The position numbers and the translations under genes were made by a program. Below are positions 1 to 43,985 of a DNA stretch of 64,000 nucleotides, piece by piece (position 1 is the first letter of the stretch; the number at the start of each line of letters is the position of its first letter). The DNA is from Tribonema minus (taxonomy: Eukaryota; Sar; Xanthophyceae; Tribonematales; Tribonemataceae). Where the stretch lies: assembly GCA_017506865.1 (NCBI GenBank), contig JAFCMP010000124.1:310001-374000 (forward strand), in the 5' to 3' direction. The notes below the pieces were generated by a model, which saw only the letters and a program-made list of their open reading frames with translations, was not told the DNA's origin and searched no databases.

Positions 1-3000
1 TCCATGTTCAGCAGCCCAAATAATTGGAGAGAACGCAATGACATACCTGGCTGCACTTGGGCTTCTTATTTGCACGGTCGCTCGTGGTGGAGGCCAGATG
101 CTCCGCACCGCACACGCATTCCGTGCACTCAACAAAATCAACTTCGACATGCATAATACCCTAGCTGCCATTGGCTTGATGCTCAGCAGCCTAGCAGGAC
201 GGAAAAGGAGGCAAAGACATACCTGGCTGCCCTTTGGCTTCTTGTTGGCGCGGTCGCTAGTGGTGGACGCCAGGTGCTCCGCACCGTACACACGCTCCGT
301 GCACTCCCGTGCCAGCCGACGTGCCTCCTCGCTCAGGTTGGGGTTGTCGGTGCGCATGTAAGTGATGAGGCCGCTCTCGTACAGCTCCTGCGCAATAATC
401 ATGGTCACCTGCAGCAGCGGCGCATGACAGTGCTCAGTCAGCATCTAGGTATGTAGGTATCGTATCCGGCTCAGTCAGTACGTGATGAGGCCGCTTTCGT
501 ACCGCTCCTGCGCCACCATCATGGTCACCTCGGCGGAATGTGACAGTGCTCAGTCAGCATCAGGTATGTACGTATTGTATGCTGCTCAAGCAGTGCGTGA
601 TGACGCTGCTCTCATATAGCTCCTGCGCCACCGTCATGGTCACCTGCGGCGACGTGTGACAGAGCTCAGTCAGCAGCATCCAGGCATGTAGGTATCAGTC
701 AGCTTCTAAGTAGGTATATGATGAGGCAGCTCTCGTACAGGGCTTGCGCCACAATCATGGCCATCTCCAGCAGCGGTATGCAACAGCGCCCAGTCAGCAG
801 CATACAGGTATGTAGGGATTATTCAGCATCTAGGTAGGTATTGAATGAAGTAGCTCTCGTTCAGGGCTTGTGCCACCAGCATGGTCACCTGCAGCAGCGG
901 TACACGGAGCATTCACTCAGCAACCGTATGTATTGGTATGTTTGGGAGTTACTCTGACTCAGACCGTACTCAAAAGAATCAGGCCACTCATACAGCTCCT
1001 GTGCCATGATCATGGTCACATGCAGCCGCTTGCAGACAGGGCTCAATCAGCCACGATCTGATGGCTGTGACTGCTGTCCCAAAGCTTTGCGTGTATGATC
1101 ACGCCGTTCTTGTACCCATGGACAGCTCCTGCGCTACCATCATCAACACCTGCGCGGAAGTGAGCGGTGCTCAGCCAGCATTAGGTATGATGGCATTGGG
1201 GCTTGTCTACTTTGTACCGGTGACGGCGGTGAGCTAAGCTACAGGACATCTTGTTGATGCAAGCGTGTATGCATGCCCATGATAATAAGGGTTGCTCAAT
1301 TTCCACAATGCGGCGCCCTATGTTGCTCAGTGTTCTGTTTCTGGCCTACTTGACGGGCACGAGCTCAACTTCAATTTCAACTTCAAGGCACTGTGCAGTC
1401 GGCTGCATCAGCCCCCTGACCAGCACTTACTGCGATTGCACCATCAAGACAACAGACATAAGTCACAGGATGCGTGCTCGCACCTCAAAAGTGAGACTGG
1501 TGAATATGATGAATGGCGAATGCGATGAAGTAACAGTGGTGCACACACGAGCGAGATGTGTTGAACGCGCACCATGTACAAAACATGCACCATGTACATC
1601 AAAGTACACACACGTTACAAGACGGTAGTCACGGATGTGTGCTCGCACTTTGGAAGTGAGCCTCAGCTTGCGGTTCCCCTCCTGCTGCAGCGTGGAGGTG
1701 ATGAAGGGGGGCGGCGGCTTGCGCCGCGAGCGCCGCGTGTCGAGCGCTGCCACGCGCCACGCAGCAGTGCTCAGCGTGTCCCGCAGCGCAACGGCGGCCT
1801 CGCCTTGCAGGTGCGTCACCTGCGGTCCAATGTTGAAGTGAAAACAGCTGCAGGTTGAAGTCTGTAGTGACCACCTTCAACTGCGGCAGTGCATGCAAGT
1901 ACTTAATGGGTGCACTTGCCGCAAGCGCTACGTGTCGAGCGCTGCCACGCACAATGCAGCAGTGCTCAGTGTGTCCCGTAGCGCGACGGCGCCCCTGCCT
2001 TTCAGGTGCGTCACCTGCGGTCCATTGTTGAAGTTGAACCGCCGCGGGGGGCGGAAGTCGCACAGCAGCAGTTGAGTCCGTGTGTTGCTTCCAGTTGGTG
2101 TGTGACGTTGCTTAGCAAAAGAGTCTACGCGTCTGCTGTGCGATATCTCTTGAACGCCATCCAATCGGGTGGAGGTCGAAAGCATTGCTGCAGTGATGGA
2201 AGCGCATGAGTGATGCTTTCGGCTCCCTGCAATCTGAGCCGAGTCTGTTCCCCTGAGTGCCCTCCCCGCCCAATGAATGGCCAATGCGCTGTTTGGGACA
2301 TGACACACTTGTACGGCATGCTCAAAGTAGCGTCCGCATCCTCTGGTCGTACTTTTCATACATCTCTGATGGTAATGCGTTCCCCGCCCTTTGACTTGCA
2401 AGTGCGCTGTTTGTGACATAATCAATAACACTTGTCCGGCACGCTCAATGCAGTGTCGACATCATCTAATTGTACTTGTTGTTAAACTCTGGTCGTAAAA
2501 ATGGAATGCCTTGAATCTTAACCAACGTGTTGATTCGGAAATGCCGACATCATATTCCAAACCCCACGTGGTTTGCTGTTCCGCATGGCTGCTTGAAGTA
2601 CTACCTGAGGTACTCAAGCGCCATCGCACAAGCTCCCTGGTCACCTATCACGGCACCTCCTGCCACAGTGCGATTCAAGCAGCTGCAGGTTAAAGTCTGT
2701 CCTTAACATCTTGAACTCAGCAGTGCATGCAAGGGATGCTGGGTGCACTACACATGGACTTATTCAGTCCACCCCCTCCACTGGCCAAGCCCTGGCTCTG
2801 CAAAATCCTAGGACTTTGCTGCGGCCAGGCACACTTGCTTAATCACCGTTTCTCAGTGAACCACATATATTTTCTTTTAAAGCTTTGAAGTAGGCTTGAG
2901 GTATCTGCACCCAGCCACTGCCACAAAAACTTTCACATTCCGACCTTTCTTCGTTGAACTTTTCTAAAAAGTAAAAAATTATTCGTAAAAAGACTGTGAA

Positions 3001-6000
3001 GGCCATATTTCAGAGAAAATATCACCAAATGTATCTTTGACAACTGATTTCAAAATACTTTGAAGTACTTGATTTGATTATTGTCAATTTTTCTTCAATG
3101 TTTCTTATGCTTTGTCTCCAACAAGGAGAGAATACACATACATACCTGCCCCGCTTGCTCCTCCTTGAGCTGCCCAGTGGATGCGTCAAAGTCCTTAGAC
3201 GTGGCCACCGGCACGCCGTCTATAGACACCAGGCGCGCCGGAAACGATCGCGTCTGCCCTGTGGCAGTTACATTTGCGTTCAAGTCCCAGTACTCGGCGG
3301 ACTTGAACTTGAGACGTGCCATCTCCCTGCGTTGCGGCGGCAACCGATCAGGGAGTGAGGGCCTTGGTGAGCGGTAAAGGAAGCAGTAAGGCAGTATATA
3401 CTATAAATGATCGGCGCACAAGCGGGATGGCAATGCAGAACCTGCGCAAAATGATTATATAAGTATAATTATTATAGAAGTATACAATTAGTACCACCTT
3501 TATTATCACATCCAGCCTATCGTAGACGTAATTTTAGTTGATTGGGTACATAGTTGATCACTCACCTTTTGACTGGTCATGACCAGGACATACTTCAGTT
3601 TAAACAGCTCTTCAACACATGCACGAGGGGCATACTGCTGGTGACGGTCAGCTTCGTTCAAACAGTCACCGCCAGGCCTACCGTCTCAATACGCCCAGAT
3701 CATGATAATTGTGATGTGCTTCGAGTTTGGTTATTGTGTATTGAGCGTTCAGATTTTGATTATCATAGCCAGGCCTCTCATATGCCTGCCGAAGTGGAGC
3801 AACGGCACAAAGCATCGCCTTTTCATGTTGCCCGGCTCATCATAGGCGTACTCCATGCTTGTTTTTTGTGCGTTGAAATTCACCTTTTGATGTTCATGAC
3901 CAGGACATAAATTTAATTGGAATAGTTCTTCTGGACATGGCCGAGGGGCGTACTGCAGTTGACCAACGCCTAGTTTTTTTTTCAAATGCCACCCGCCAGG
4001 CCTACCGTCTTGATACACCCAGTTGATCAGGATGATATGAACTTCAATGGTTTTTTTCATTTTAAAATTTGACATTCACCTTTTGATGAGCATGGCCTGG
4101 CCTCTCATGTGCCTGCCGAACTGGAGCAACAGCACCAATTTATGTTGCCCTGCTCATCAAAGGCGTACTTCCAGTTTGTTTATTGTGTGTTGAACATTCA
4201 CCTTTTGATTATCATGGCTAGGGCCACGCTCTGAACGCGCCCGGCGCTGAGCTTGGGCGCTATCTTGCGCCACAGCAGCGGCGACATGGTGTACCCGGCC
4301 AGCCTGCAGTGGGCAGCGTCGAGGCAAACAAGTGAAAATCACTTTACTGGAAGTGTACTGAGAGTGTACTGATGGTTGCAGCGCTGCGGTAACTTGTGCC
4401 ACAGCAGCGGAGACATGGTGTATCCGGCTAGCCTGTGGTGAGCAGTGGAGATGTGCGTGGAGTTAGTGTACAGGTAGTGGTACTAGTGCTTCAGCGCTAT
4501 GACATGCTTTATTCGCCCAGCCTGCGGCGGTCAGCGAGAGGGGAGAACTTTCCCAGGAGAAGTAAACTGCATTGGTGCTGTATTGTTTTGACGGGTGAAG
4601 CGCAGGGCAGTATGCCTGCCGTTGCTGCACGCAATGGGTTAGGGTTAGGGTTAGGGTTAGGCAAGTACAGCCTGTACATGAAAGTACAGGGTACAGTACA
4701 GGGTACAGTACAGGGTACTTCCTGTCTAGGATGCTGCGGCGGCGAGGCGGGCGGGGGAGTGAACACCTTGGTATGTTGCTGGCATGCATGGTCATTTGTT
4801 GAAGTTAGCATTGTTTGCTGAAGTTAGCGCGCGTACGATAGCGGCCACGTAGCAAGTCTGCCGCGCTGTTGCGCGCGTGGCTCCTGCGTTGTCTGCTGTC
4901 GTGCTGTCGTTGTGTTGCCTGCGACTACCCTCCCTCAAACTGTAGATTAGCAGGGCTTTCATCGTTGTGACCGCCCAATGTTACTGTCGTTGTCGCTGTC
5001 CCATATGCCACTGCACAGCCGCAGATTATGCCAACAAGAATGCTATCTTCTGCTGGGAAGGCTAGGACCCTCGTAGAGCTCCATGTCAAGGACACGGACC
5101 AGACGAGGGGGGCATGGAGGATGCCAAAGACAAGGCTGCCAACGCCATGGAACCAAACTTCAAGTCCGGAAGTCCACAAGCATTTTTGATAAGCAGTGCA
5201 GCACTCGTGTGTTTTGTTCCTGCGGGGCGGCAGTCTCGCACTGCTTGTCAGAGAGAGCTGTGTATTTACGGACTTGAAGTCTGGTTCGATGGCATTCACC
5301 GCCTTGTTCTTCACATTCACCATGCCGCCCTAGGCTGCTCCGTGTGTTCAGCCTCGAGCTCCACGAGGCCCCCGGCCTCCCCAGCAAAAGGACAGAGACC
5401 TCATTGTTTTCGCGTGCAGTGGGGCGGCGGCGCGACGCAGACACGTAATATTCAGGTTTTACAGATTCAAGCCGAAGTCTTAGATACTAAATGCGTACTG
5501 GCCTTTCTTTATAAGAAGAGGAACACAAGCACCTACCATTGCTGTCCACCGTGTTTCTGTACATCTCCTCAACGACTATACGTCGATGCAAATCAGCCAT
5601 GGGCACGTCATCGGTGCACGACACCGCGACATGCACACTGGCAGGCGCTGTGCACCCGCTGAGCCATGCAACACGTTTTAAGGCACCAGAAACCAACTAT
5701 GGTGGTCCGCTTTAACCTGGACTGGGTCAGTCCCGATTGAACACAAGGTGGGCAGGGAGTACAATGTAGAAATGGATGTATGTCTCCACACTTCAAGTTC
5801 GAATGCGGGCTCAGTTCAGTCCGGGTTCGAACTGAGTTAAGTCACTGCATGCAACTCCCACCCTTCACCAAGCGTGCACCCTACTTCTTAAAGTATGAGT
5901 AATGTAGTGGGGTGTTGCAGCTGACACAAGGTCGGAGCAATCATCCTGCCCTACATGGCGAGTGCATCGCTTAACCGCACCTGATCTGGCTCTGACTGTA

Positions 6001-9000
6001 GCTAATGACTCGCATAATCAATGTATGTACATGTGCACACTTGAGCCTCACCCGCGCGGTTGACAGTGCATGTCAAAAATACCAAGATGTGGGAAATGGC
6101 GTGCCCTAACCAGGCTCGAGGTATCCCGAACTGTGACCCTGACACAAAAAACTGTAACCCTGGTCGTAGGGTTTGTACCTGTCGATGATGCGACGCGCCT
6201 CCTGAGCGTCCACTAGTGCGTAGTCGATTTCACGCGTAGTCGCAAACGCGCGCGCGATCGCCTCCCTCGTGATCTCGTGGAACACTGCGCGGCTCACGGG
6301 GACCTGGAGGGCGATGACGCACCGCACATTTGAAATTGGAAGCGAGACAGGTAATGGATGAAGTACTTCACGAAGGAGTATCTTTGACAGGCAAAGTGAC
6401 GACTGACGGTGTGGCAATTGTGGGGCACTGCCCCCGCAAATGTCCTTGATGGACTGCCTTCAAGTGCTGCCTGCGCCTGCATCCTGACTGTCAATGCCGC
6501 CGCTAACTTCAAGAGCACTCCAGCCAAGCCTGCAACGCCTGAGCAACAACAGCTTCCCTTGCAACCAACCATTTGTAGACAACAGATGCCGGGCAGTGAG
6601 GTTGCAGGATACAGATCCCGCCGCCTAACCCTAACCCTAACCCTAACCCTAGCGTTAGGTCATGAGCGTTATTGCGAAGGGTATGTAGGAAGCAGAACTC
6701 AAGATACGGAAGAAGTGCTCCGTACGCCACATGCAAGCATACATCAACGATACGCATAACCACCAGCCCTTTGATGTACACCTATGTAGGGTGTGGATGC
6801 CCTCACATGCACACACGCGTGGAGCGCCGATACGTGCGCTGAAACAGAGCCAACAGCGCTCAAGCGCAGGCTCACGGGTTCTGGAAGTGTACTTCAAGAA
6901 GTACTTCAAGTATGTGATAGCCATGTCCAACCTTCGGCTGCAGTGCCTGCACCAGGTGCCAGCTGATGGTCTCTCAAATCCTATGAGTATACTTCAGAGA
7001 AGCACTACAACGAAGCACTTCAAAGAAGCACTTCAAAGCAGCACTTCAAAGCAGCACTTCAGAGAAGGACTTCAAGCATGTGACATGTGACAGTCGTAAA
7101 CTAACCTTCGGCTGCAGTGCCTGCACCAGGTGCCAGCTGATGGCCTCACCCTCCCTGTCCTCGTCAGTGGCCAGGATGATCTCATCGCAGGTGCTGGCCA
7201 GTTGCTTCAATCTGCATAACAGTTACAGTTGCAGTTGAGGACAGTTTATGATACTGAGACCGCAGCAAGGTGACACATGCGTGCTGCAAGTACCTCACCA
7301 CAGAGTTGATGGCCAGCCGTGCAGTTGTGCACCGACACCACTGCCAGAAGCGTCGCCACATGCAAGAGATCACTGAGCGTATGAAGGGCTTGTTGAAAGG
7401 CGGTGGTCGGCTGCTTCAGGCTGTGCAGCACGTGCGCTGCATTGACACAGCATCATCATACATGCATACCGCAATCCAAAGCTGTTGCCGTAAAACAGAG
7501 TCAATCGTACAACATCCCTTGCCAGCGTGCTCAGCTGTCTGCAGAACACAAGAAAGTGCGGCAGGCAGCACACACAAACGTTCCTAGGTGCAAAGCCACA
7601 ACAGGCTTGCCGTAACCCTAACTTTGACCCTAAGCAGGGGCAGCGCTCAGGCGTTCTGCTGCTACCATTGGGAACCCTGACTGGAGCACAAGCAACCCAA
7701 CTGTTTTTCTAAAAGAGGGGGGCATTGCGCTGGGATGAGCGATTGCGTGCTTGCCATTGGCATGGCCTGGCTCTGCACAAGTTCAAGTTGTCTCCAGCCG
7801 AGAGTTGTCTCCAGCCGAGAGCCGACGGGCCTGCTTGAACCCTCGGCGCACAGCACGCGTTTGAGAATAAAAGGCTACCGGTGACGCGCTTCGTGCCGGG
7901 AGAGATAATGTTCAGCAGCTCGAAGTCGCCATTAGATAAGCAAAGTTACCATTGGATACGCATGTATGCATGCTCACTGTGCTCAGGCTACCTACCTGTC
8001 GCTTATGCATCGTACAGTGGCTCAGAGCCATAAGTGCATAGGTGTTCACTGAGCTGCGGGCTGCCTGCCTACATGACAATGACGAGCTTCTTGCCCGAGA
8101 AGATGATGTGAAGTCTCAATTGCATAGGCAAATACGCATGCTCATTGCAATTTGGGCTACGTACCTGTCGATGACGGCCTTCTTGCCGGGAGAGATGATG
8201 TACAGCGGCTCAAAGTCTTTGTCCACATTCACGCCCATCGTCGCCCACTTTTCCTTCTTCAGAGCTGCCGGCACCTGTGCATGGCAGTTACATAGCGACA
8301 GTTACTAGTGACAGACCATGAGTAAGTCAGCAGTGCTCAGCGCATGCGCAAGTGTTGTGCCCGTCTCTTGCTGCAGCGCTGCTGACGCCTCCTGTGCATG
8401 ACCGCTATATCAGTTACATCAGTTACAGCAGTGCTCACGTGCACTGATGGAGCGACTGCAGTGGACAGTAACCGTACATTGACTTTATGTGACAGCAGTG
8501 GTCGGGTACACTTAAGTGAGCGATGGCATTGCTCAGTTCAAGTAAGTTAGTAACTGCAGTGCTCAGCGCATGCGTGGGGGCCACCTGAGGGCGTTGTGTA
8601 CTTCAAAGACATACACTTCAACATACACTTCCGCAGGATGCACGGTGTTGCTGACTTCACCACCCTAAGGGAGCTGTTGGAGACGTGCTGTTTGGTCAGA
8701 ATTAGAATTACTGTCTGCGACGATGTCCAAGCGTATGCGTCTGCGCTTGTGCGCCTTGCTTCCGCGCGTAGGGTTAGGGTCGAGGTTAGGGTTAGGTTTA
8801 CAAACCCGCCGTGCACGCCCCACGCGAGAGGCAACACTAGAGAATGCTGACTGGACAGCAGACACAGCAAGCCTCACGCACATTTTGCCACCATGCCGAT
8901 GATGCCGTCATCACCGGCTTCTTCGCTCACAAGTGCCAGCGGCCTTTGGTGCTAATGCACTAACAGTCGTGTCGAGGCGAAGTTGATATCACCAAGAGTG

Positions 9001-11936: not shown

Positions 11937-12447
11937 GCAGCCCGCACCACAGGACGCGCCGCAGCCCCCCGCAGCTGCAGAATCAGCAGTTGCAGATCAG
12001 AGTGCCGCTGAATCCTCTTCTCATCCAACAACACGTCTCATAAATTCATTTTCAACTTGAAGAAGGCGAGTCACCGCCTTATGTGCGAGATCTGCCCCAA
12101 TGCTGGTAGCTTGATTACTAAGTAGTGTGTGCTAGCAACAAGCTGCGCACCCCCAATTCGTTGACCCAATGCAACATCACAAGCACAAATGCCAGATCTC
12201 ATTTAAAGCTAGCTCGAGGCATTGACGCCTGTCATTGCAAGTCAGCTCTCAAAGCGTTCAATCGACTTGCACCTCAAACCTCTCTGCTTTGCAGCATGCG
12301 GTAGGGCATGTGAAAGTACTCTTTGCAGCAGCATGCATCAGGACGCTCCGGCTCTCACTACACAGTCGCACTGCGGCAACACACTGCGGCACCAAACGGC
12401 ATGCATGACACACATCATCAGTACGCTCCATCCATTCATGTCATATT
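11937..12447. other. Spacer between RPN13 and topA, including the RPN13 3' flank
   Basis: Both genes are on the minus strand, so this holds the RPN13 3' UTR and the topA promoter. No core promoter motif stands out. At 12316-12350 and 12400-12440 there are diverged copies of part of RPN13 exon 10 (gcatcaggacgctc and catcagtacgctcc, against gcatcagtgcgctc in the exon). Confidence 0.5.
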
Positions 12448-12630
12448 TCACTGTGTACCGCCGCTGCCGCCGCCAGTCGCTGCAGCATCCGCATCCTTCT
12501 TCTGCTTTGCAGCGTGCATCAGTGCGCTCAAGAGAGCCTGCACGCCGTCGCCGCGCGACAGTGCAGCCATCGCGTCGGGATTGTTGGCGTCCAGGCCAAA
12601 GTTGCTCATGATGGAGTTGAAATTGTCAGA
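12448..12630 (-). CDS. RPN13: RPN13 exon 10 and stop
   Basis: It encodes SDNFNSIMSNFGLDANNPDA, then a helix ending in a Lys/Ala-rich and Gly-rich tail. The TGA stop is at 12448-12450. The LxxLLxxFGL-like segment matches the family C-terminus. Confidence 0.9.
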   Translation of the reverse strand, partial: SDNFNSIMSNFGLDANNPDAMAALSRGDGVQALLSALMHAAKQKKDADAAATGGGSGGTQ

Positions 12631-15600
12631 CTGCAGGAGGTGAAGTAGAAGGCGGGCATGTCTTATGTGAGCATTGAGTTTTGAGTTCACCTTCGTTCCA
12701 TGGCAACACCGTAGTTGCAGCCTGCGCCAAAGGCTGCTGTTGGCTACCTGCAAGACGTCAGCAAGCCTGTTGGTGGCTGGCAGAGTGGCAGCAGCGCTCT
12801 ATGCCAATCACCGTTGCAGCATTGCCCATGAGGTGCTTCTTCAAGTTCGATTCAGACTGAAGTGGCGAGGCAATGGTGCAGCCGCTGCCTGGGATCTGCT
12901 GGTGCTCAAGTTTTAAGTGATCACCAACGGCGCGCCTTGGACTGTTGCCTCTCTGCCTCTGATGCCATACCAACTCAACTGAGCAGTACGCGCGCGACCT
13001 CAGCTGCAGTGATGCTCAACTCAAAAAAGAGCCCTGACGCTCACCCTAACTTAATCCTCTGCACGCGACCACACCAAGGGTAAGATAAGCCGCCAGTGAG
13101 CAACCGAACCTCAATGCAAGATCGTCAACTGTGGCAGCGTCTGTGCATGACTTCGACCTGAGCAGCACAGTGGCGATTATCATAGCTCGTCAGGGAGGCA
13201 ATTTCGCGAACAAGCGGCAACAACGCATCAACAAGCTCAGCACCTACAGCTGTTTCCGCAGTTGCAACAAGGCTGTGACCAGAACTGTCTGCAGTGGTCA
13301 ACGGGCAGTGTCTTCTGCACTGATCTGTGGGAAGATCTGGGTGAGGTCACCGGGGGTTGGTTGCCTGAGTTAGTCACCTGCACTTGGTCAGAGTAAAAAA
13401 GTCAGCGTCCGAGTCTTTTACACGCACCTGCAAAGCATGCGTCAAGCTGGCCAGGGCCTGCTGAAGCTGCGGGCTGCGGAGCGTTTCGCCCACCTCTACC
13501 TCAGCACCCCCAGGCTGCTCCTCTGGCACCAGCTGACTGAGCTCCTCTACCACCTGGATAGGGGGGGGGGGGGGGCGGGGGGGGGGGGTCCGCAGCAGCA
13601 AAATGTAAAACCACCTGTGCTGCAATGCTGTGCCAATGAGAGCTCGAGTCCCATTGCCAACCTGGTCCATCATCCAGGGCAGAATAATTGCAGCGGAGGA
13701 ACTGCTGCTCCCCCCAAGCCAGTTACTTGAGGCTTCTCAATATTGCAGTTCGTCACAAGCAGGAGCTCGTGTGCTTGACCGCATTAAGGCACTGTGCTCC
13801 GCGCTCATGGCAGCTTATGCAAGTGCTGGCGCCTTGCAAGGCGTTGCAGTGACCGCCCTTGGCTACTCCTGGACACGCAACAAGTCAACACTTGAGCACA
13901 GTGCTGGCAGGACTTGAACCCGCACTTTACAGGCCAGCATCCATTTTAAAAGAACAGCGATCCTGCGAAATGGCACGCAATGCATGCCAGCTGGCCAGAA
14001 CCTGAAGGAAGGCACTCAGACATGGACAAATATTGACTGTGCCAGCCTGCACCGGAGCGTAAAGTCACATAAATGCGCGTCGTGAAGCACACTGTTACTG
14101 TAGCTTCTCCAAGGGTTAGGGTAGCTTTCAGCCTTGCAGTGGAGGCATCACCCAAACATCACCGTGGGCACCGCCTAATTTGAAGCGTCATGTCCACTGC
14201 TGCAACGTAGACCGTAAATCAATCAAGTAGAAGCAGCAAGTCATGGCCATTGCAGAGGGCTACACACACAAGCGCGCAACGCACTTGCGCGTCACGGCTT
14301 ATCCAGCTGGCATCGTAAGGTCGCCTGCTGCGTCCGCGCCATAATTGCGGGCGAACTCAGTGCAGCTCCAGTAGTACTTGTGGTGACCTGAGACACCTCA
14401 TCACAAGGCGCATGTACACTTGGTAGCAAGCATGGCCATCAAACGCCCGGGCTTTCTGGCACCATAAGCAAAATCAACAAAATGTACATCATAGTACTGT
14501 ACGTCATGCAACAAAGCAGCACGCGTACTTACATACCTGAGGGTCATTGAGTATGCCGGTGGCCAGGACGTCGTCAGCGCTCAGCACCTCGGTGAGGGGA
14601 ACAACGCGCGGGCGGGGGGCCGCGATGCCCATCATGGCGCGCTGCAGATCCGCTGCCGTGATGCGACCTGCAGAATGCGCACACGTCGATCATAGGTACT
14701 TCAGAGTACATCATAACGCTGGAAGACACTTGCCTGTGCCTATATTTACTGGTGAAGTATATAGTATAGACATAACACCATGGCGCGCTGCAGATCTGCT
14801 GCCGTGATGCGGCCTGCGGCAATGCGCGTACACCAATCATACTTCTAAAAATGTGTATCATATCGCAGCAATGCGCAGACCTCAATCCTGATTACTGTAC
14901 GACTCTGCATTAAGAAATACTTCCACTGAAGTAGACATGTGCGTGCGCCAAAGCACATACTTGCATTGAAGCAATCATGTACTTGAAGTACGTACTCCAA
15001 AGCTATACAGTAGGAGTACCATCATGGCGCACCGGAGCTCCTCCGCAGTGATGCGACCTGAAGCTAAGCGCATTCAACATCCATCAGTGCTTCATAATGC
15101 TGGACTCAACAACTGCCTATATGTACTTGGTATATTATGATCTATAAATGAAATTTCTATCATGGCGCGCTGCAGGTCCTCAGTGGTGGCGCGTCCTGCG
15201 GCTATGCGCATACATCAAGCATCAGTACAGCGCGCTGCACCATACATACATACTACTACGAACTGTACATGCAGATATATGACATGAGAGGACAGTGCAT
15301 ATGTCTAGCAGTGCATATGGTGCGTGCTGCACAGGTATGGTGGTGGACTGTACTCATGTACCATGTGTTTGTGTAGCATTGGGCGATGGTATGCAATATA
15401 CCGTGTACTGCAGAATCAACCTGTTCTACAAGAATGTACAGGTAGTGCCATGAGCACTCAATCATTGCTGGCTGATCTCCCCCCCCCACACGAATAGAGT
15501 GTGTACAGGCATGTTACTGAAAGCTCCAAGCACAGCCAATGACCAGGTGACGACGCGGCAGCTGATAGTGGCAGCTCAGAAAGAGGTGGTTTACGCCAAC

Positions 15601-18600
15601 TTCAACATGAAGGTTTGGCATGAGACGGACACGCGGCAGCGCTCTCCTCATTCCCACTTAACGACGGCATGCTTCCAGAGCTTTAAATCATGAAGAAGCA
15701 TAGAATTCGGTGTTTGCTTGCGGCAGCAGATGATTGTGGCAGCTCAGCAGCTATGCCAACTTCAACATGAAGCTTTCACATGCGGGCACGCGAAGCTCTG
15801 CTGATTCCTACTATACATCATCGCTCCTCGACTTCAAATTGGAAGTATTATGGACGTGCTTCGAAGTAACAGTATAAATATTGGGTGCTTGCTTGACTGC
15901 AGCACTTCGGCGGACAAGTCAAGCGGTGGACTACCTGTCGCTCCGGGCGCAGCTGGTGCTGCGGCAGGCGGTGGCGGAGGCTCAGTGGCCGCTGCTGCCT
16001 GCGCCCCTGCACCAGAGCAACACAGCAGCGATCAGCAAGCCTCAGTGCTCAATAGCGAGTCTAAACCCTATCATTTTCCATCGAGTGACACTGGAGCCAC
16101 TTCACATGCCTTTCAGATCCTGTCACGGAAACCCACAGCAAATGCAGATGTGGAACCTGCGCAACTCCGAGCACCGCCTGTAGTGGCATGAAACTGGCTC
16201 TGGCAGCAGCACTCAAAGGATCACGCATGAGGCTTAATAGCTTGTGCCTCGCAACAAATGGCAGGGTGCTGCGAATGCAGCGGTTTCCAGAGAGTACGTT
16301 GTGAGGTGCAATTGCAGTAGTCCTTCAGGATTTTCTTGAGCCACCTCTGTCCAAAGCAGTGCATTGGCAAACGAGCCTCAATTAGCAGCACAGCAATCAA
16401 AAATACAACTAAGCATGTGCTCACACACAGCAGATTCCGTTGCCCATGAATACTTGACTGATGATTAATATTAGTGCCAATAGAGCATGTAAAGAACGGG
16501 GCATGTTAGGGGACATACAAGACCATGCCCGCGTGACAAACAAAGTAATATGATGGCGAGCAACACATTTTTTTCACTTCAAGTAATTACACACTGTTGC
16601 CAAAAGTGAGCTTCTACCATGCAGCATGCTTGAAGCGCTGTGTTTGCGGACAGTTGCCAATGCAATTCCCAACGGCAGCTTGACTACAAGCAAGTGGAAA
16701 CTGCTGCCATAACTCTAAGGTGGACTGTTCAGCATCGCCGTGGCGCACAGCTGGTATGTGCAGGCATCACAGTGTCAATCACGTTCATACGTACATGCCT
16801 CAAACTGCTCAAAATGGAGCTTTGTGTATGGGCAATAGCAACGTGAGGATGAATGTCATATAAGCTGCGGTTGATCACCTACATTGCCGCTCGTACAATA
16901 GCTAGAGTACTTAGAAGCGGGATGTCAAATACGCCTGTGATGATCACAAACCACCTTGGAAACAAGTGTAGCAGTATACGGAAACAAATCAAAAAATCGT
17001 AGAGCTCTATATATGCCGCGCAGAGCGTAGCCTGCTTCCCCTCAACCTACGAGGTCGTTCGCCACAGCCCTTGTGTGCTGTTTGGAGTATGTCAAAAAAC
17101 CTGCTCCAATGCTCAAACTAATCGACACGCTCGGAAGCTCAAGCACCGATCCAAAACAAAACAGTACACCTTGCGCAGCACGGACAGCGCTGCCTGGCTG
17201 ATGACGTTCCTGTCATCGGCACCGGTTGTGACGATGCCACAAGCATTTCAGAGTTGAAGTACATTAGAAGTACGTGAACAAGCATAGACTACATACCTGT
17301 CGGCTGTGGAGGCGCAAATCCCATGTTGTTCAGAATGCCCTGCAGAGACTGCAGATCCACCTGTGGCGGGGCGAATGCAGTGGAAGCAGTGACATCGCTC
17401 AGTAACAGGGTCGCGGGTATGCTGCAAGTATACCGTAGGTAACATTCCAAACTGCAGCAACTGCAAATCCACATGTGAAGGGGGACACAGCAGCAGCTGC
17501 TGTAGCACGTATCGCCTAACTACACCATGAATCCAACCAGGCTATAACTTACCAGCTCTGTCGGCACCTGGTGGCCACAATCTCTACCTTAGTTCCTCAC
17601 GCTGAGCCCTTTTCTTACCTACCTGCCATGCTTGCGCCCTGATGCTGGCATAGAAATGCAACATTAAAATTGCTCATCCTCCAGCTCACGCATACTCCTG
17701 GGTAAAGCTATGTTCAACGCACCTATACCTACCAGCTCCTCGGTGAATGACCCTTAAACGTCGCTCCCGACACTGCTGGACCATACAAGTGTGTGCTTGC
17801 CCTGGTGCCACAGATGGCCGATAACTCCAAGAATTCTAGCTCGTATCAAAGAATGCCATTCATCATTAATCAAATCTGTCACCCAAGCCCTAACTTCAAC
17901 CCTACCATAACCGACCCGTTCTGCGGGCAGTTGATCGTAATCCCGCTTCCTGACGTTAGACCTGTCATGATCTACCTATCCGCCATGCTAGTACTCTCCT
18001 GGTTGATTTGCTGACACATTAATTCCGGCACCGACCGGTATTAAAAAATGTGCCACATTAATTCCGGCACCGACCGGTATTAAAAAAAGGGGCCAGTCAT
18101 CAAAACCGCATCAAAACCGTCGTCGCCTGCGCCCAACCTGAACCCGTGCTGTGTACTGTATGTACCACCAGCCCTGTGGGCACTCATCAACCAGAACCCT
18201 AACATTGGTTGGTGATCTAACCCTAATTCATGAAATGAGCACTGTCATAGCCCGCCTGCCCTGCTTGCGCTCTTACGTTGGCATAGAAGAGCAACATAAA
18301 ACTTGCTCACCGCCCAATGCAAGCGTACTTCTGGATAAAGACATACTTCAATGTCTCCATACCTGCCAGCCCCTGAGCAACCATCAAGCAAACCCTAGTT
18401 CATGACGTTGAGCACTGTCATAGCCTACCTGCCCTGCTGGCGCGCCCGCAGTTGGCGCGGCGCCGGCGGGCCTGCTCCCGAGTGACCTGCCAGGCATAAA
18501 GGGCAAGACCTAGTGTTAGGGTCAAGCAGTTCAGGCCCGTTACGCTCAACTTGAAGACGATCAGCTTTCACGAAAGCAACAAGTTTTGTGTCGGGTAAAT

Positions 18601-21600
18601 ATACAGCAGCATGGCCAGTCGTTCTTGTTTGGGCACAGAGCACGCATGTGCTCCTGCTGTGACCCCCCCCCCCCCCACACACACACACATACCCAGACAG
18701 GCATGACCTGTGAGCAGCGTTTAGCACTTTTCGTTCTGGAATGATGTGAGCGGGGCTTTGCAGAAACGCTGCAGCCAGTACGACGCGCCATGCAGATAGG
18801 ACACCCCGCCTGGTTTTGCAGCTCCTGCTGAAGCACTTCAAAAGCAGTGTAATCACAAGCTTGTCAGCAGCGTTCGTTCTGTGTCAGGAGCGTATGGCAG
18901 CTCGATTGCTGAGCATCTGATGACTTGTAGCAGGCTGTGCAAGACTGGGATATGACTGCTGCGCGCTGCGGGACTGGGAATACGTAAGCACGTCGCGAAG
19001 CCATCATGATGAGTGACGCTCTGCATGTCGAAGTACTGGCAACTGTACATCACAGCGGGGTGATCAGCGGTCTCAAACTTCATGATGCCATTGGCCAGAA
19101 GCCACCACAAAAAAGCCTCAACGCAGGCCAGACCTTCGCCAAGCGAACGCTTTTTAATGCAATTGACCATGGAGCAACGCGGAGAAACAGTCGCTTCCTT
19201 GAACGCAACCACTGACCATAATCTTCCTTTTAAGAACCCAGCAATGACTCAGCCCTACCCCCAACTCCATGCTGCTGGCTGGCAGCGCGCAACAATTGAC
19301 AATAAGACCCTGACGTCATTGCACAAAGTTTGAAACACACATGGCGACGCCAGTCGAGCCCGCAGCAGCGCAGAGAGAGTGATGCTGGCAGCAGCGCTCA
19401 ACAGTCATCACTCACGACTCATGAGTGAGTCATCACTCATGGGTCATGCCGTGACGTGATCGTATGATAGAGGACGCCTGATGATGACCCCAGGCCAGAC
19501 AAGTCATCAGCAGCTCAGCAATGACGGCGGCACTGAGCACCCGCTACCGATGCCGTGACGGTCTTGCACTGAAAACCCACCTGATATGTTCTTGCTTATA
19601 AAACGCACCTAATAACCTCAGACAGGCCGTCGGCAGCCGGCGGAGCAGCGCCGCCAGTCGCAGCGGGAATGGGCTTTCCCTCCAGGCACGCCTGTACTGC
19701 CGCCAGATACTCCGCATCCTGTATGAGTGATGGAAAAAAAACATCAGAGATGCATGTAAACATCCAAACTTCAGGGAGGGAGTGGCACAGCAGCCGACCT
19801 GGAGTGAGAGCGCAGAGGGATCTTCAAAGTGCAGACTCAAGTTGATGATTCAGCTTCTCCTTCAGGCACGCCTGCACTGCCGCCAGGTTGTCCGCATCCT
19901 GCACATGCAATGGAGAAACAATATATTCAAAGATGTATGTATGTCAATACTTGAACCTCATGGAAGATAAGGGAGTGGCACAGCAGCCAACCTGGAGCAA
20001 GAGCGCACAGAGATACCAGCAACTTGGCATCAAGTTGAAGAGAGAAATGATCCGCGATATCAGATCAAGCTCCCCCCCCCCCGCCACGCCTGCACTGCCG
20101 CCAGATGGTCCGTGACCTCTAAAGCAAAGGCGTACTTGAAGTGCAACTTCGTGTTGGCAAATTATCATATAGAGCTTGCCCTTCAGGCACGACCGCAATG
20201 CATCCAGGAGGTCCTTGCCGTGCAAATGAATATATGGCCAAAGCGGAGTCAGATTGAGTTTGAATGGAGTCGTTGCTCACGTAGGGTTGTCATGATGTGT
20301 CACAACAACTTGAAGTAAGATATTGGGCGGAGTGAAGTCGGACCGGGTTTTTCAGGAGTGTTCGCTGATGCGGAGTCGCCATGATGCCCGGGGAAAAGCT
20401 GTTTGCAGGGTGGCGGTTTGAGGCGTGTTGGTGATACTAACAACAAACTTTGCACAGGTACAAGCGCTTAAGTAAGAGAATCTCCGGGTGCTGCTCTTCA
20501 TCTGCAGCAGGTACACCCTGTCCTACAACTACATGCTTCAAAGTACATCACATTCACGCCAAGTGCGCACCTTGTCAGCGCTCTTGTCCTGCATCCAATA
20601 GAAGAACCTCCGCGTGCTGTTCTTCATCTGCAGCAGGTACACCCTGTCCTGCGGCCGCCCTGTGTCCACCTTTGTGAACTCCATGTCTCCCGGCATCACA
20701 ATAATGTCATCTACCACCTGCGCACCAACCGCAGCGCACGCCCGAGTTCAGCTTTATGTGAATGCAAAAGTGCACGTAGCCCTCACTGCTTTTGTAAGAA
20801 TGTCATGCTGCTTACGATGGAGCAAGATATGATCTTGTGAAAATTATTTTGATACTTGTACATCAAGGTACAGCGTTGTGGACTTCATGTCGCCTGGAAA
20901 CTTAACAATGTCATCTCCCATGTGCGCATTATTATTGCACGTGCATGGTGCATCACGTGTACCCCGGACAGGTGGGACGAGGCTATAACTTGAACGTGTG
21001 CGTTTACTATACGTGCTTGTGAGCAAGCGTCGTGATGATCATCTGCGGTATTTCGCGCCGCTTGAGGAAGAATCAACAGAATTTTCATAAAGGCGGGCTT
21101 ATACATGACCAGCTGCTGTGTTAATTGAAGTTGGTGGCTGCTGCTCTGCCGCCTGCGGGCAAGCACGGTATGCGCTAGCTGTTGACACTAAGCCCAGACA
21201 GTCGTATAAGGTGCACAAGCACCATCCACCACTGAGCCCAACGGGTGCTAGCCATTTCGGGTCAGTGCTGCGTCGTCATGATAGCATACTTCATGCAGCA
21301 TGGCTCAAGAGCGTTGCGCTCATGTGCATGCTGAGCACTGATGCGGTGGCCACGCCAGCCAAAGGTACGTCAGCCGAGAAGTCAAGACTATGAACGCGCA
21401 TCGTACCAGTACCTGCCTGCACATACGCCAAGCAATCGTTGGAAAATACTTGCGTGTCGGCAAGCGAGTCGCAGATGCACGTGGTGCTGACCAAACCACC
21501 ACCTGTTAGGGTTGAGGAATTGGTGCACTGCTACACTGAGTTGTGACTGCAGCTGGCGCAGATTGAACGCAATGAGGCGAAAGCTGCAATCTGTCCTCAG

Positions 21601-22435
21601 CGCCAGTGTAATAATCCCGCATGCTGCCGTGCGACGTGACACGATCGCTGCACAATATCATGTCATGAACTTGAACTGCATTGGAGCATCTTGAGAGCAG
21701 GCTCAGAACAGCGCGCTTGGTGCTGGAAAATAAGCTGAAATACTGCCGGAAAGTAAGCTGAAGTATCGCCAGCATAGCAGGATTAGGTGCTTGCTGACGT
21801 CGAGTTTCTTTAAAAGTCATTTCGCTAATACTTCTGAAGTATTGGCTTTGTACAGGCCAACAAAAGATGCCCTTTGTTTGAAGTCATGAGATGCGACCTT
21901 GGGCGTGTTTTCTTGCTGCTGCTGCTGCTGCTGCTGTGAGTCAAGATGGCAGCAGCGAGATCGTTGATGAACATGCACCCCGCATTGTTTTAACGGAAAG
22001 CCATCGTAAAGATCGTGATAAAGATCATATTGATACAATCCTCGGCGGCACTCACTGCTCTAGTGACTCTGTCCTGCCACTGGAACCGCATGAGCTGATC
22101 CATCGCATCCTTCAGCACAGTGATCTGCAAGAAAGAACAAGCAACCGCACAAAACCTCAACTCGCGCGCGGGCAAGTTATACTTGAGCTGCTCAGATTTT
22201 GAGAGTATAGCAATATGAAGGCCACAACTCATTAGAGACTACCAATGAATGCAAGTAGGTGCGCTTGTGTGTCGCCAAGCAGGGATGATCAATATACGGA
22301 CAAAAGCTGCGACAGAAGCTGGATCTAGAGCTGGCTGACCTGTCCTTTCCGCTTGTCGGGTGTGATCGTAAATTTGCCAGCTGCTCCCTCCTTGTCTTGC
22401 AGCTTGCCAGCCTTGAAGCTAACAAACGTGCTCAT
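12448..22435 (-). CDS. RPN13: 26S proteasome ubiquitin receptor RPN13/ADRM1, complete, ten exons
   Basis: RPN13 sits on the regulatory particle through RPN2, binds ubiquitin with its N-terminal Pru domain and recruits the deubiquitinase UCH37 with its C-terminal DEUBAD domain. Exons 22340-22435, 22056-22124, 20571-20717, 19609-19718, 18429-18486, 17297-17360, 15935-16006, 14537-14667, 13428-13553 and 12448-12630 join in phase to about 351 residues, a normal length. The Pru domain is seen as MSTFVSFKAGKL, ITPDKRKGQ, RFQWQDR, DDIIVMPGDMEF and RFFYWMQDK. An Ala/Pro/Gly-rich linker follows, then the DEUBAD segment with LRSPQLQQALASLTHALQ and IMSNFGLD. All introns are GT..AG. Whether the protein binds UCH37 here is known only for the family. 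Introns carry exon-edge copies like those of topA. Confidence 0.93.
13428..13553 (-). CDS. RPN13: RPN13 exon 9
   Basis: 42 codons with VVEELSQLVPEE and TLRSPQLQQALASLTHALQ, the best conserved DEUBAD segment. The acceptor follows a nearly pure poly-C tract of 28 bases. Confidence 0.92.
13561..13588. repeat. Poly-G tract (poly-C on the coding strand)
   Basis: 28 bases of G, interrupted once by C, lie eight bases outside RPN13 exon 9, where the polypyrimidine tract should be. Confidence 0.95.
14537..14667 (-). CDS. RPN13: RPN13 exon 8
   Basis: It encodes RITAADLQRAMMGIAAPRPR, then VVPLTEVLSADDVLATGILN, the start of the DEUBAD helical region. The acceptor is GCAG|GTCGCA and the donor TCAG|GTATGT. 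Three decayed copies of its 5' edge lie upstream. Confidence 0.88.
14775..15206 (-). repeat. Three decayed copies of the 5' edge of RPN13 exon 8
   Basis: The exon edge gcgctgcagatccgctgccg (14639-14658) recurs in changed form at 14781-14820, 15024-15066 and 15163-15206. Each copy includes the acceptor-side gatgcgacctgc and some intron. Confidence 0.85.
15540..15800. repeat. Tandem pair of about 110 bp in RPN13 intron 7
   Basis: 15557-15660 and 15719-15815 share gtggcagctcag and the block ccaacttcaacatgaag. No exon is copied here. Confidence 0.65.
15935..16006 (-). CDS. RPN13: RPN13 exon 7 (linker)
   Basis: An Ala/Pro-rich linker (AQAAAATEPPPPPAAAPAAP). The phase at both ends agrees with exons 6 and 8. 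The acceptor is GCAG|GGGCGC and the donor ACAG|GTAGTC. Confidence 0.7.
17297..17360 (-). CDS. RPN13: RPN13 exon 6
   Basis: It encodes VDLQSLQGILNNMGFAPPQP, the start of the region before DEUBAD. The acceptor is ACAG|GTGGAT and the donor ACAG|GTATGT. It leaves one base for exon 7. Confidence 0.85.
17436..17482 (-). repeat. Diverged copy of the 5' edge of RPN13 exon 6
   Basis: The plus strand reads cattccaaactgcagcaact then gcaaatccacatgtg, resembling 17320-17364 of the exon and its acceptor. Confidence 0.65.
17615..18285 (-). repeat. Copies of the 3' edge and donor of RPN13 exon 5
   Basis: Blocks at 17615-17665 (cctacctgccatgcttgcgc), 17965-17995 and 18240-18285 (gcccgcctgccctgcttgcg) resemble the exon end and donor at 18422-18450. 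Confidence 0.65.
18015..18087. repeat. Exact 34-bp direct repeat with 5-nt spacer
   Basis: 18015-18048 and 18054-18087 are identical (cacattaattccggcaccga and on). Each ends in an A run. Confidence 0.95.
18429..18486 (-). CDS. RPN13: RPN13 exon 5 (linker)
   Basis: 19 codons of Ala/Gly/Pro-rich linker (SLGSRPAGAAPTAGAPAGQ). The acceptor is GCAG|GTCACT and the donor GCAG|GTAGGC. The frame is fixed only by its neighbours. Confidence 0.7.
18663..18689. repeat. Poly-C followed by (AC)n
   Basis: Fourteen C followed by seven AC units in RPN13 intron 4. Confidence 0.95.
19609..19718 (-). CDS. RPN13: RPN13 exon 4
   Basis: It encodes DAEYLAAVQACLEGKPIPAA, the helix that follows the Pru domain, and then a linker. 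The donor at 19608 (AG|GTGCGT) is preferred over GAG|GTTATT at 19617 because only it keeps the next exon open in a sensible frame. Confidence 0.8.
19855..20222 (-). repeat. Three decayed copies of the 5' edge of RPN13 exon 4
   Basis: The exon start caggcacgcctgtactgccg (19683-19702) recurs at 19866-19885, 20087-20104 and 20184-20205 with one to several changes. Acceptor and intron sequence are copied as well. Confidence 0.8.
20474..20533 (-). repeat. Copy of the inner 3' part of RPN13 exon 3
   Basis: tgctcttcatctgcagcagg then tacaccctgtcct repeats 20617-20650 of the exon almost exactly. It lies downstream of the real donor. Confidence 0.85.
20571..20717 (-). CDS. RPN13: RPN13 exon 3
   Basis: 49 codons include VVDDIIVMPGDMEF, RVYLLQMK and RRFFYWMQDKSADK, completing the Pru domain. 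The acceptor is GCAG|GTGGTA and the donor AAG|GTGCGC. Both edges are duplicated in the flanking introns. Confidence 0.92.
20866..20930 (-). repeat. Copy of the 5' edge of RPN13 exon 3
   Basis: On the minus strand it still reads MGDDIVKFPGDMKSTTLYLD, against VVDDIIVMPGDMEF in the true exon. It lies upstream of the real acceptor. Confidence 0.8.
21914..21937. repeat. (CTG)7-8 microsatellite
   Basis: Seven to eight CTG units in RPN13 intron 2. Confidence 0.9.
22056..22124 (-). CDS. RPN13: RPN13 exon 2
   Basis: 23 codons give ITVLKDAMDQLMRFQWQDRV then TRA, the FxWxDR segment of the ubiquitin-binding Pru domain. The acceptor is GCAG|ATCACT and the donor GCA|GTGAGT. Confidence 0.9.
22340..22435 (-). 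CDS. RPN13: RPN13 exon 1
   Basis: The ATG at 22435 starts MSTFVSFKAGKLQDKEGAAG, then KFTITPDKRKGQ, the first strands of the Pru fold. Donor ACAG|GTCAGC. No longer N-terminus is needed, because family members start the same way. Confidence 0.92.
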
Positions 22436-22951: not shown

Positions 22952-24001
22952 ATGACCATCGCACCCAGAGGCAGCAGCAAGGACAGAAGCAGCACAGAGT
23001 ATTACCAGGCCTGGCGGAGCAGCACTACTGGTAGGGGAGCACGCGGACTGGGCAGGCAGCATCACAACGTCCATGGACTCCGGGCCAGCAGTGCTGCGGC
23101 TGGTTGGAGCGGAAGCAGCACAAGCGGAGTAAGCAGCAGCAGCAACAGCAACGAAGGGGACACCTACAGCCTCATCAGGGTCATCCAGATGGACGAGGCT
23201 GTTCCGGACACACAGCGCAGAAACGGGTGGAGGTATACCGCCCCTAATGGCCAGTGCTACCGTGCCCAGGCCAAGTTTGAGACGGGCTTCAGAGTGCGCT
23301 GGGTCGAGGGCCTTGGCAGCTGGGCCGCCAAGAAAGCAGGCACGTGCTGGTTCAACTCGGCTCCCCCTGGAGGCGACCCTTATCTTCCGGACTTCCTGTC
23401 GTGGGCACGTAGCCTGCTGCAGTCGGGCCGTGTGCATCCTGATGATGAAGCAGCGTGGCGCTTCGCATTCGTGGACGTGGAGGGGGGTGGCAGGGGAAAG
23501 TATGTCATCTCAGCAGCCGACTCCACTTGGCGCACCATGGTGTCATGGGTACCCGCCCACCTGGGTGTTCCATCTTCCCAGCAGCAAGCCGATGGCACCA
23601 AAGTGGTGCGCTTATGGCAGCTGCCGCTCCGTGCAGGGGGTAGTGAAGACCTGACGCCGTGGTTGGAGCCTGCAGACGCGGCGGCTGCAAACACTGCTGA
23701 CGATGAAGTGTACAGACAGCTCAGCGTAGCCTCCTTTGGCCAATTGCGCCCGCAGTACGAGCCCGTGACCGTTTTTGCCAAGAGATGGAAAGCCTTGCTC
23801 CCAGGATCGTGCCTGGCTATCCTCATCGCAGATGCTTGGAGAACCAGGCAGCTACAGTTGTTCTTGAGGCGCTCACACTGCCACAGGTTCGGCTTTCGTG
23901 ATGTAGACCCTGGAACACACGAGTTCATCCCACCTGCGCCACATGGTCGGCCAGCAGGAGCTGCGAGGGCAGGTGTCAGCACGCAACGCACTCGCCGGTG
24001 A
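22952..24001 (+). CDS. N-terminal part of the TIR-element protein (frameshifted from 23943-27683)
   Basis: This is a 349-residue frame starting at an ATG just after a purine-rich leader. The first 90 residues are Ser/Gly-rich and low in complexity. After that comes a folded-looking region with KKAGTCWFNSAPPGGDP and a second block ending FGFRDVDPGTHEFIPPAP. TCWFNS resembles the Cys box of cysteine peptidases, but no further support is visible. The frame ends soon after PAPHGRPAGAA. The damaged copy at 54850-55100 reads straight through here because it lacks one base present at about 23973, so this ORF and the next were most likely one gene of about 1,580 codons. I do not recognise the N-terminal domain. 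Confidence 0.65.
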   Translation: MTIAPRGSSKDRSSTEYYQAWRSSTTGRGARGLGRQHHNVHGLRASSAAAGWSGSSTSGVSSSSNSNEGDTYSLIRVIQMDEAVPDTQRRNGWRYTAPNGQCYRAQAKFETGFRVRWVEGLGSWAAKKAGTCWFNSAPPGGDPYLPDFLSWARSLLQSGRVHPDDEAAWRFAFVDVEGGGRGKYVISAADSTWRTMVSWVPAHLGVPSSQQQADGTKVVRLWQLPLRAGGSEDLTPWLEPADAAAANTADDEVYRQLSVASFGQLRPQYEPVTVFAKRWKALLPGSCLAILIADAWRTRQLQLFLRRSHCHRFGFRDVDPGTHEFIPPAPHGRPAGAARAGVSTQRTRR

Positions 24002-43923: not shown

Positions 43924-43985
43924 ACAGCAGGACTGCAAGCAGCAGAGGTTGTGGGACAGCGAAATGATTTGGGGTCGCATGTCAT
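43137..43985 (-). pseudogene. Endonuclease-domain remnant of ORF2 in the inverted copy
   Basis: The minus-strand frame matches the last 260 residues of ORF2: CPWRCSDVSPTSTHAISC, YRADTVID and IVLDTSVRAPTAS are present. The N-terminal 20 residues come from flanking DNA, so this is not a complete gene. Confidence 0.85.

What the first reader, a model, noticed from the sequence alone, without database searches (positions are those of the whole stretch)
1..22435. Introns of two unrelated genes are littered with decayed copies of exon edges plus splice sites
In topA and RPN13 at least nine exons have one to six diverged copies of their start (with acceptor) or end (with donor) in the adjacent intron, always in the same orientation and next to the parent exon. 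A trace is also seen in the kinase-like gene (49342-49376). This suggests a recurrent process that tandemly duplicates short segments spanning splice junctions, after which only one copy is used. It could explain how introns grow in this genome, and the copies may act as decoy splice sites or as a source of alternative exons. The sequence shows the copies directly; the mechanism is inferred.
Basis: partly seen in the sequence, partly recalled or inferred. Interest (0 to 1): 0.85.

Follow-up and report, generated by a model that had tools for sequence, protein, structure and literature searches.

The report
Splice-junction duplications that lengthen algal introns
In this ochrophyte-like algal genome, stretches of about 150 bases crossing an exon-intron border are copied again and again into the neighbouring intron, where the copies decay while only the original stays in use, so introns appear to grow outward from their splice sites.

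Summary
In topA and RPN13, 12 of 35 splice edges (9 exons) have significant copies in the adjacent intron. Over 19 genes of the same genome, 63 of 180 edges do; at score >=20 copies lie on the expected side for 58 of 180 edges, the wrong side for 2 of 179, inverted for 0 of 180. Spacing is about 143 nt; 126 of 161 copies cross the junction; none of 60 nearest copies holds a whole exon. Copies evolve nearly without constraint, yet many keep a splice site that scores like real ones. Junction events exceed simulated random placement. Copies age outward in 16 of 17 arrays and mostly derive from the functional edge, not from one another. Five genes (47 edges) have none. The kind is known: amphioxus 'mirages', one potato case. 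New here are the lineage, the density and the outward-ageing pattern without concerted evolution. No RNA shows whether the decoy sites are used; the trigger is unknown.

The parts
12448..22435 (-). RPN13 (ADRM1-like) gene, 10 exons: 22435-22340, 22124-22056, 20717-20571, 19718-19609, 18486-18429, 17360-17297, 16006-15935, 14667-14537, 13553-13428, 12630-12448
   Evidence: model, open frame; coordinates; stramenopile RPN13 relatives, PF04683/PF16550
1..11936 (-). bacterial-type topA gene, 9 exons in the window: 11936-11586, 9837-9757, 8274-8165, 7211-7106, 6303-6179, 4303-4202, 3326-3146, 1819-1649, 408-223; further exons lie left of the window
478..1196 (-). six upstream copies of the acceptor edge of topA exon 9 (580-478, 696-597, 819-714, 939-845, 1051-978, 1196-1089)
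1..130 (-). downstream copy of the donor edge of topA exon 9 (spacing 176); two further copies left of the window
1925..2712 (-). copies of the acceptor edge of topA exon 8: 2059-1925 (junction-spanning) and 2712-2677 (intron part only)
4386..4536 (-). two upstream copies of the acceptor edge of topA exon 6
3512..4096 (-). four downstream copies of the donor edge of topA exon 6
6891..7036 (-). copies of the donor edge of topA exon 4: 6973-6891 (exon part 98% identical over 42 nt) and 7036-7008 (intron part only)
7879..8104 (-). three downstream copies of the donor side of topA exon 3: 8104-8065 (weak, score 18), 8001-7943 (mostly intron part), 7927-7879 (exon part, stops short of the junction)
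14776..15228 (-). three upstream copies of the acceptor edge of RPN13 exon 8
17452..17483 (-). weak upstream copy of the acceptor edge of RPN13 exon 6 (score 15 against at most 14 in controls; its AG reads AT)
19853..20207 (-). three upstream copies of the acceptor edge of RPN13 exon 4
20477..20510 (-). downstream copy of a stretch near the 3' end of RPN13 exon 3; it does not reach the donor
20868..20928 (-). upstream copy of the acceptor edge of RPN13 exon 3 (its AG reads AC)
49328..49398 (-).

Best explanation
Introns of this genome grow by recurrent tandem duplication of DNA segments, mostly 100-200 nt, that cross a working exon-intron junction. A unit made of intron tail plus exon head is doubled upstream of an exon, or one of exon tail plus intron head downstream. 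Only the inner copy stays joined to the rest of the exon, so it alone remains coding. The outer copy becomes intron, keeps its splice signal for a while and decays without much constraint. Later duplications mostly start again from the working edge and push older copies outward, so the array ages with distance from the exon. Shown by sequence: anatomy, side and strand rule, spacing, near-unconstrained decay, outward ageing, exon as main source, excess at junctions. Inferred: that splicing ignores the outer sites because exon definition favours the nearest acceptor-donor pair (sampled introns hold about five times as much sequence as exons), and that the trigger is a property of working junctions rather than of their sequence. 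The molecular trigger is unknown; a nucleosome- or Okazaki-sized replication or repair product is my guess from the spacing.
For: 63 of 180 edges in 14 of 19 genes; right side 58 of 180, wrong side 2 of 179, inverted 0 of 180 at score >=20. In the six MCM genes, all of which were taken, 15 of 43 edges. 126 of 161 copies cross the junction. Spacing median 143, IQR 120-174, n=137. Exon-part divergence .114 against .219 for the intron part in the 63 copies with at least 25 aligned nt on both sides, about 1:2 as expected if only the exon is frozen. Copy-exon differences by codon position .096/.089/.212. Exon-involving families 68 v intron-only 35, and 31 v 2 at score >=60; random placement with intron drift raised to fit gives fractions .32-.35 (maximum .47) and .33-.38 (maximum .52). 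Intron-only families also hug exon edges, 9 of 33 within 40 nt v 2.7 expected. Identity to the exon falls outward in 16 of 17 arrays. Non-exon bases shared between copies at codon positions 1 and 2: 67, against 24.6 by coincidence and 241 if copies were made from one another.
Against: Five genes with 47 edges show none (L025, L029, L036, L037, L038), so the process is gene-specific in an unexplained way (heterogeneity p=2.5e-7; expected counts per gene are small). By plain coverage the contrast inside the window is mild: 60-mers with a local copy at score >=16 are 36% at junctions, 31% inside exons, 23% in introns. Intron flanks of copies are less alike (.672) than a plain neutral simulation with the same exon identity gives (.749); I had to let introns drift 2-2.5 times faster to match, so rate differences or conversion from the exon are not excluded. 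Shared changes exceed coincidence (67 v 24.6), so a minority of copies were made from copies, for example in topA exons 9, 10 and 11, L022 exon 1, L023 exon 3 and L028 exon 3. Changes private to one copy show a mild third-position excess (.052/.065/.090) and stops are few (5 of 1505 codons.33% v .80% in a uniform-mutation simulation). 35 of 161 copies do not cross the junction. Apart from CCT-alpha, gene models rest on homology and splice consensus, not RNA.
Confidence: 0.75

Rival explanations
1. Ordinary tandem duplication strikes everywhere at one rate. Copies of exon edges merely stay recognisable longer, because the exon side does not mutate.
For: Local direct repeats are common in 20 stretches fetched without regard to genes: 22% of 60-mers score >=18, against 1.1% in a null and 5% inverted. 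35 intron-only families exist. The detection bias is real: exon side .114, intron side .219 divergence.
Against: Most copies do not seem to have seeded further copies although they carry nearly the same sequence, and this test does not depend on that bias.
Confidence: 0.15
2. The copies are kept because they work, as alternative or poison exons or as decoy splice sites regulating the gene.
For: Splice dinucleotides are intact in 50 of 63 acceptor and 61 of 69 donor copies. 47 of 73 donor and 41 of 64 acceptor copies score like real sites, against 3.0% and 9.9% of random intronic GT/AG. Exon parts are better kept than flanks. Private changes have a mild third-position excess and stops are few.
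Against: The third-position excess in private changes is small (.052/.065/.090) and position 2 is not the slowest; silent changes of the parent can explain it. 20 of 92 copies carry frame-shifting gaps. Identity falls with distance from the exon. Intact dinucleotides are only slightly above the neutral expectation (76 of 88 v 67.5), and local alignment favours them.
Confidence: 0.06
3. The copies stem from gene conversion or unequal exchange within pre-existing minisatellites, not from repeated duplication at the edge.
For: Exon parts are more alike than flanks, as conversion from the exon would give. Amphioxus mirages show concerted evolution.
Against: Adjacent copies are no more alike than distant ones: mean difference -.017, and 183 of 200 permutations reach it. 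The outward decline of identity in 16 of 17 arrays is not an obvious conversion pattern.
Confidence: 0.08
4. The blocks are dispersed or introner-like elements, or assembly artefacts.
For: None found.
Against: Each of the 63 significant edges beats 200 stretches from introns of other genes. Exon parts of copies differ from the exon by 0-31%, unlike duplicated reads. They occur on many contigs.
Confidence: 0.01

Closest known systems
[quoted passage not shown] PMC3087553 and PMC3902484 seen as passages; the original Adh paper is not held)
   Same: Tandem units cross exon-intron boundaries at both acceptor and donor edges; units of 150-160 bp in globin BflGb6 and 157 bp in BflGb9; many copies keep AG/GT; normal splicing reported there from RT-PCR.
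   Different: Other eukaryotic lineage; 35% of the sampled edges here; copies age outward from the exon and show no concerted evolution, whereas amphioxus BflGb6 units do; allelic and somatic instability not testable here.
[quoted passage not shown] potato RdRp case PMC4974935, abstract and Results section; Drosophila PMC2891723, abstract)
   Same: Tandem duplication that supplies splice signals; the potato case crosses an intron-exon border as here.
   Different: Those events create a new intron or a new exon arrangement. Here coding sequence stays the same and an existing intron lengthens.
Tandem or mutually exclusive exon duplication (recalled, no call)
   Same: Same-strand copies of exon sequence in the adjacent intron.
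   Different: Whole exons with both splice sites and protected frames; here 0 of 60 nearest copies are whole exons.

Membership tests
Mirage-type boundary duplications | Tandem repeats that span an exon-intron boundary | tested here: met
   126 of 161 copies cross the junction; nine families drawn at their period
Mirage-type boundary duplications | Both 5' and 3' boundaries can be duplicated | tested here: met
   29 of 91 acceptor edges, 34 of 89 donor edges
Mirage-type boundary duplications | Copies do not disturb normal splicing | not testable with these tools
   no RNA reads; the one gene matched to a transcript protein (L025) has no copies
Mirage-type boundary duplications | Concerted evolution within the cluster (reported for BflGb6) | tested here: not met
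   17 arrays
Mirage-type boundary duplications | Length instability between haplotypes or somatic cells | not testable with these tools
   one assembly only
[quoted passage not shown]
   the tool states that this genome has no relatives held; the models show lengthened, not added, introns
Introner elements | Near-identical sequence in introns of unrelated genes | tested here: not met
   introns of other genes as control (19 genes, not the whole genome)
Tandem exon duplication | Whole exon with both splice sites copied | tested here: not met
   0 of 60 nearest copies

The most novel reading that the evidence does not exclude
Working splice junctions themselves are duplication hot spots. Something tied to being a used exon edge (co-transcriptional R-loops or nicks, a nucleosome or Okazaki unit parked at the border, or an unspliced-RNA-templated ends-in integration) copies about 150 bp around the junction again and again, while near-identical decayed copies a few hundred bases away are mostly spared. 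Introns then grow as a conveyor of their own exon edges.
Probability: 0.3. Interest if true: 0.9.

Novelty: new variant of a known kind. Interest (0 to 1): 0.7.

Why it matters
How introns reach their lengths is an open question. Here the length can be read in part as dated layers: recognisable exon-edge copies already cover 12.4% of intron sequence in the sample (aligned parts only). The genome offers a natural experiment on how a spliceosome ignores strong duplicate splice sites about 150 nt away, and on whether splicing or transcription leaves a mutational mark in DNA. If confirmed genome-wide, it would turn a curiosity of amphioxus genes into a more general route of intron growth.

Tried and rejected
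Dispersed repeats and introners: rejected by other-intron controls. Inverted copies: none at score >=20. Coding constraint on copies: little support. Purging of decoy sites: not seen; splice dinucleotides are kept at about the neutral rate or slightly above. A motif as trigger: TTGAAGT/ACTTCAA is strongly over-represented in introns but only mildly so near duplication joints (9 and 12 of 136 joints at 0-20 and 20-40 nt, v 4.6 and 4.8 for random points) and is absent from the modelled introns of two copy-rich genes, L030 and L031, so it is not required. GC or intron length as the cause of gene heterogeneity: no clear rule by eye. Breakpoint microhomology: not measured; the copies are too decayed. 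The copy-copy flank identities were dropped because free end gaps made them unreliable; searches replaced them with end-penalised alignment. The first random-placement simulation (7 genes, no calibration.22 v .62) was superseded.

Sampling told plainly: topA and RPN13 came with the finding. The CCT loci L022-L024 were picked partly because the table already showed repeated profile positions there; L025 and L026 were picked without that; other CCT genes in the table were not fetched. All six MCM loci were taken. The three ALDH genes (one search scored only 12 of 55 candidates), two DEAD genes (35 of 139 candidates scored) and one of several Rpb2 genes were chosen for having several exons. Stretches L002-L021 have no exon models, except that topA continues through L003 and L002. 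Edges whose boundary I could not set were left out before counting (lists in the scripts). In the intron-length comparison, 13 introns that may hide unmodelled exons were left out. The 85-of-89 count covers copies with a frame known in that call, of 137 copies with a placed junction. The L034 exon 2 acceptor was set 3 nt too far left and L027 exon 2 has a GC donor in my model; both stayed in the counts. One 17-aa exon of L025 was missed.

Full report
What is in the window. The stretch 1-22435 holds two genes on the minus strand. One is a bacterial-type topA whose 120 listed relatives are 49-58% identical type I topoisomerases. The other is RPN13, whose best named relatives are stramenopiles: Chrysoparadoxa australica 43%, Scytosiphon 41%. 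Both give open frames across GT-AG introns. The window is C124:310001-374000 of a 158.18 Mb assembly in 554 contigs. A CCT-alpha gene model from the same assembly (L025) matches a EukProt transcript protein at 472 of 472 paired residues, with one 17-aa exon missed in my model. A transcriptome of the same species therefore appears to exist, and the splice rules used here hold for that gene, which itself has no edge copies.

Beyond the window. Exon-wise profile searches of the whole genome already show the pattern. Read by eye, repeated partial profile ranges sit on the same strand next to the fuller exon in C51 (two), C135 and C5 of the chaperonin table, and in C445, C156, C146 and C1 of the MCM table. 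They also do so in C445 of the tRNA-synthetase table and in C246 and C511 of the kinesin table (122 of 191 candidates scored). I saw none in HSP70 (73 of 98 candidates scored) or Rpb2. I fetched 17 more genes or gene parts. The edge test then covers 180 edges of 19 genes: 63 are significant (37 of 102, 26 of 78), in 14 genes. At score >=20 the copies lie on the expected side in 58 of 180 edges and on the wrong side in 2 of 179. Both wrong-side cases are exons of 117 nt or less, where the 70-nt query reaches the other edge. Inverted: 0 of 180. The six MCM genes, all taken, give 15 of 43. Five genes (L025, L029, L036, L037, L038) give 0 of 47; the heterogeneity is significant (chi-square 65.6, 18 d.f., p=2.5e-7).

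Anatomy. There are 161 copies in 63 families, one to eight per edge; 126 cross the junction and 35 do not. Junction-to-junction spacing has median 143 nt, IQR 120-174, 5-95% 89-218, n=137; the search could hardly see spacings under about 60 nt. The exon part of the nearest copy has median 53 nt (IQR 40-70), and none of 60 contains the whole exon. Drawn at their period, young examples such as L022 exon 2, L028 exon 2 and L030 exon 1 match over exon tail, donor and intron head. These are plain tandem duplications with one end in the exon and one in the intron. Acceptor edges (29 of 91) and donor edges (34 of 89) are hit alike. Introns with copies are longer, median 1067 v 649 nt (n=30 v 38, p=3e-4); within copy-bearing genes 1067 v 797 (n=30 v 17), p=0.06.

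Fate of the copies. In 63 copies with at least 25 aligned nt on both sides, the exon part differs from the exon by .114 and the intron part by .219, close to the 1:2 expected when only the exon stands still. Differences by codon position are .096.089 and .212. Third positions also count the parent's own silent changes. Changes private to one copy are .052.065 and .090, a mild third-position excess. 20 of 92 copies have frame-shifting gaps, and 5 of 1505 codons are stops, fewer than the .8% of a uniform simulation. Copies thus look nearly unconstrained, with the low stop count and the mild third-position excess as small dissents. Splice dinucleotides remain in 50 of 63 acceptor and 61 of 69 donor copies. 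41 of 64 and 47 of 73 still score within the range of real sites, while only 9.9% and 3.0% of random intronic AG and GT do. Use of a copy site would bring a frameshift or stop in 85 of the 89 copies with a known frame. How the spliceosome avoids them is not shown; exon definition, which favours the closest acceptor-donor pair, is my inference.

Is it aimed at junctions. The obvious bias is that exon copies stay recognisable longer. I simulated tandem duplications placed at random in the same genes (unit lengths taken from the observed ones), aged them with frozen exons, and ran the same repeat finder. Real intron flanks decay faster than the plain model (intron identity .672 observed v .749 simulated at equal exon identity), so intron drift was raised 2-2.5 fold until the flank identity fitted. 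Random placement then gives an exon-involving fraction of .32-.35 (maximum .47, 12 runs per setting) against 68 of 103 observed. Among strong families it gives .33-.38 (maximum .52) against 31 of 33. Intron-only families also lie close to edges, 9 of 33 within 40 nt v 2.7 expected. Faster turnover deep inside introns, or a dependence of duplication on GC, could weaken this comparison.

Source and order of the copies. In 16 of 17 arrays with three or more usable copies, identity to the exon falls with distance from it (mean rank correlation -.65), and adjacent copies are not more alike than distant ones. At codon positions 1 and 2, the 143 pairs of copies share 67 non-exon bases, where coincidence predicts 24.6 and full nesting 241; at position 3 the numbers are 146, 62.5 and 388, as silent changes of the exon would add. 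Most copies were therefore struck directly from the working edge; a minority, for example in topA exons 9, 10 and 11, L022 exon 1, L023 exon 3 and L028 exon 3, were copied from copies. A copy carries nearly the same sequence as the edge yet less often seeds further copies. This argues, independently of detection bias, that being the working edge matters. Conversion of copies by the exon could mimic part of it.

Comparison with what is known. [quoted passage not shown] PMC3902484, one passage). A single boundary-crossing duplication made a new intron in potato (PMC4974935, abstract and Results section). A review calls tandem genomic duplication a genuine route of intron gain (PMC3443670, passages). 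My ten library searches showed no report of the pattern in an ochrophyte or as a route of intron lengthening, judged from capped listings of titles and abstract openings; the library lacks most subscription papers. The present case works like a mirage. It differs in lacking concerted evolution, in ageing outward, and in its density.

Verdict. The kind is known; the lineage, scale and exon-sourced order are, as far as these searches show, new. The cause is open. The spacing near 150 bp suggests a nucleosome- or Okazaki-sized intermediate, but this is inference.

Noticed in passing
introns of the 19 sampled genes; random loci; window: The heptamer TTGAAGT/ACTTCAA occurs 1.69 times per kb in introns and 0.41 in exons, against 0.11 expected from trinucleotides; AACTTCAA is 22.7-fold over-represented in 16 fetched stretches. 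Function unknown; mildly enriched near duplication joints.
   Followed up: partly
genes L025, L029, L036, L037, L038: No edge copies in 47 edges although other genes of the same families (CCT, MCM, ALDH) are full of them; no simple rule in GC or intron length seen.
   Followed up: partly
36055-42225, 59007-61550: Two long open frames with reverse transcriptase domains (PF00078), probably non-LTR retrotransposons.
   Followed up: no
41253-41873, 43489-44001, 53789-54409: The same translated stretch occurs in three places and in both orientations, apparently fragments of one retroelement.
   Followed up: no
23943-27683: A 1246-aa open frame with weak helicase matches (AAA_30, UvrD_C_2, below cut-off).
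   Followed up: no
4636-4661, 6624-6651 and random loci: Interstitial telomere-like GGGTTA/CCTAAC runs; CCCTAA-type octamers are 33- to 89-fold over-represented in 16 fetched stretches.
   Followed up: no
33581-33765: An 18-bp repeat of about 10 copies that reads as a proline-rich PIPGPP repeat.
   Followed up: no
loci L002-L021: Local direct repeats at score >=18 vary from 0 to 53% of 60-mers between 20 stretches, so duplication-rich and duplication-poor regions alternate.
   Followed up: partly
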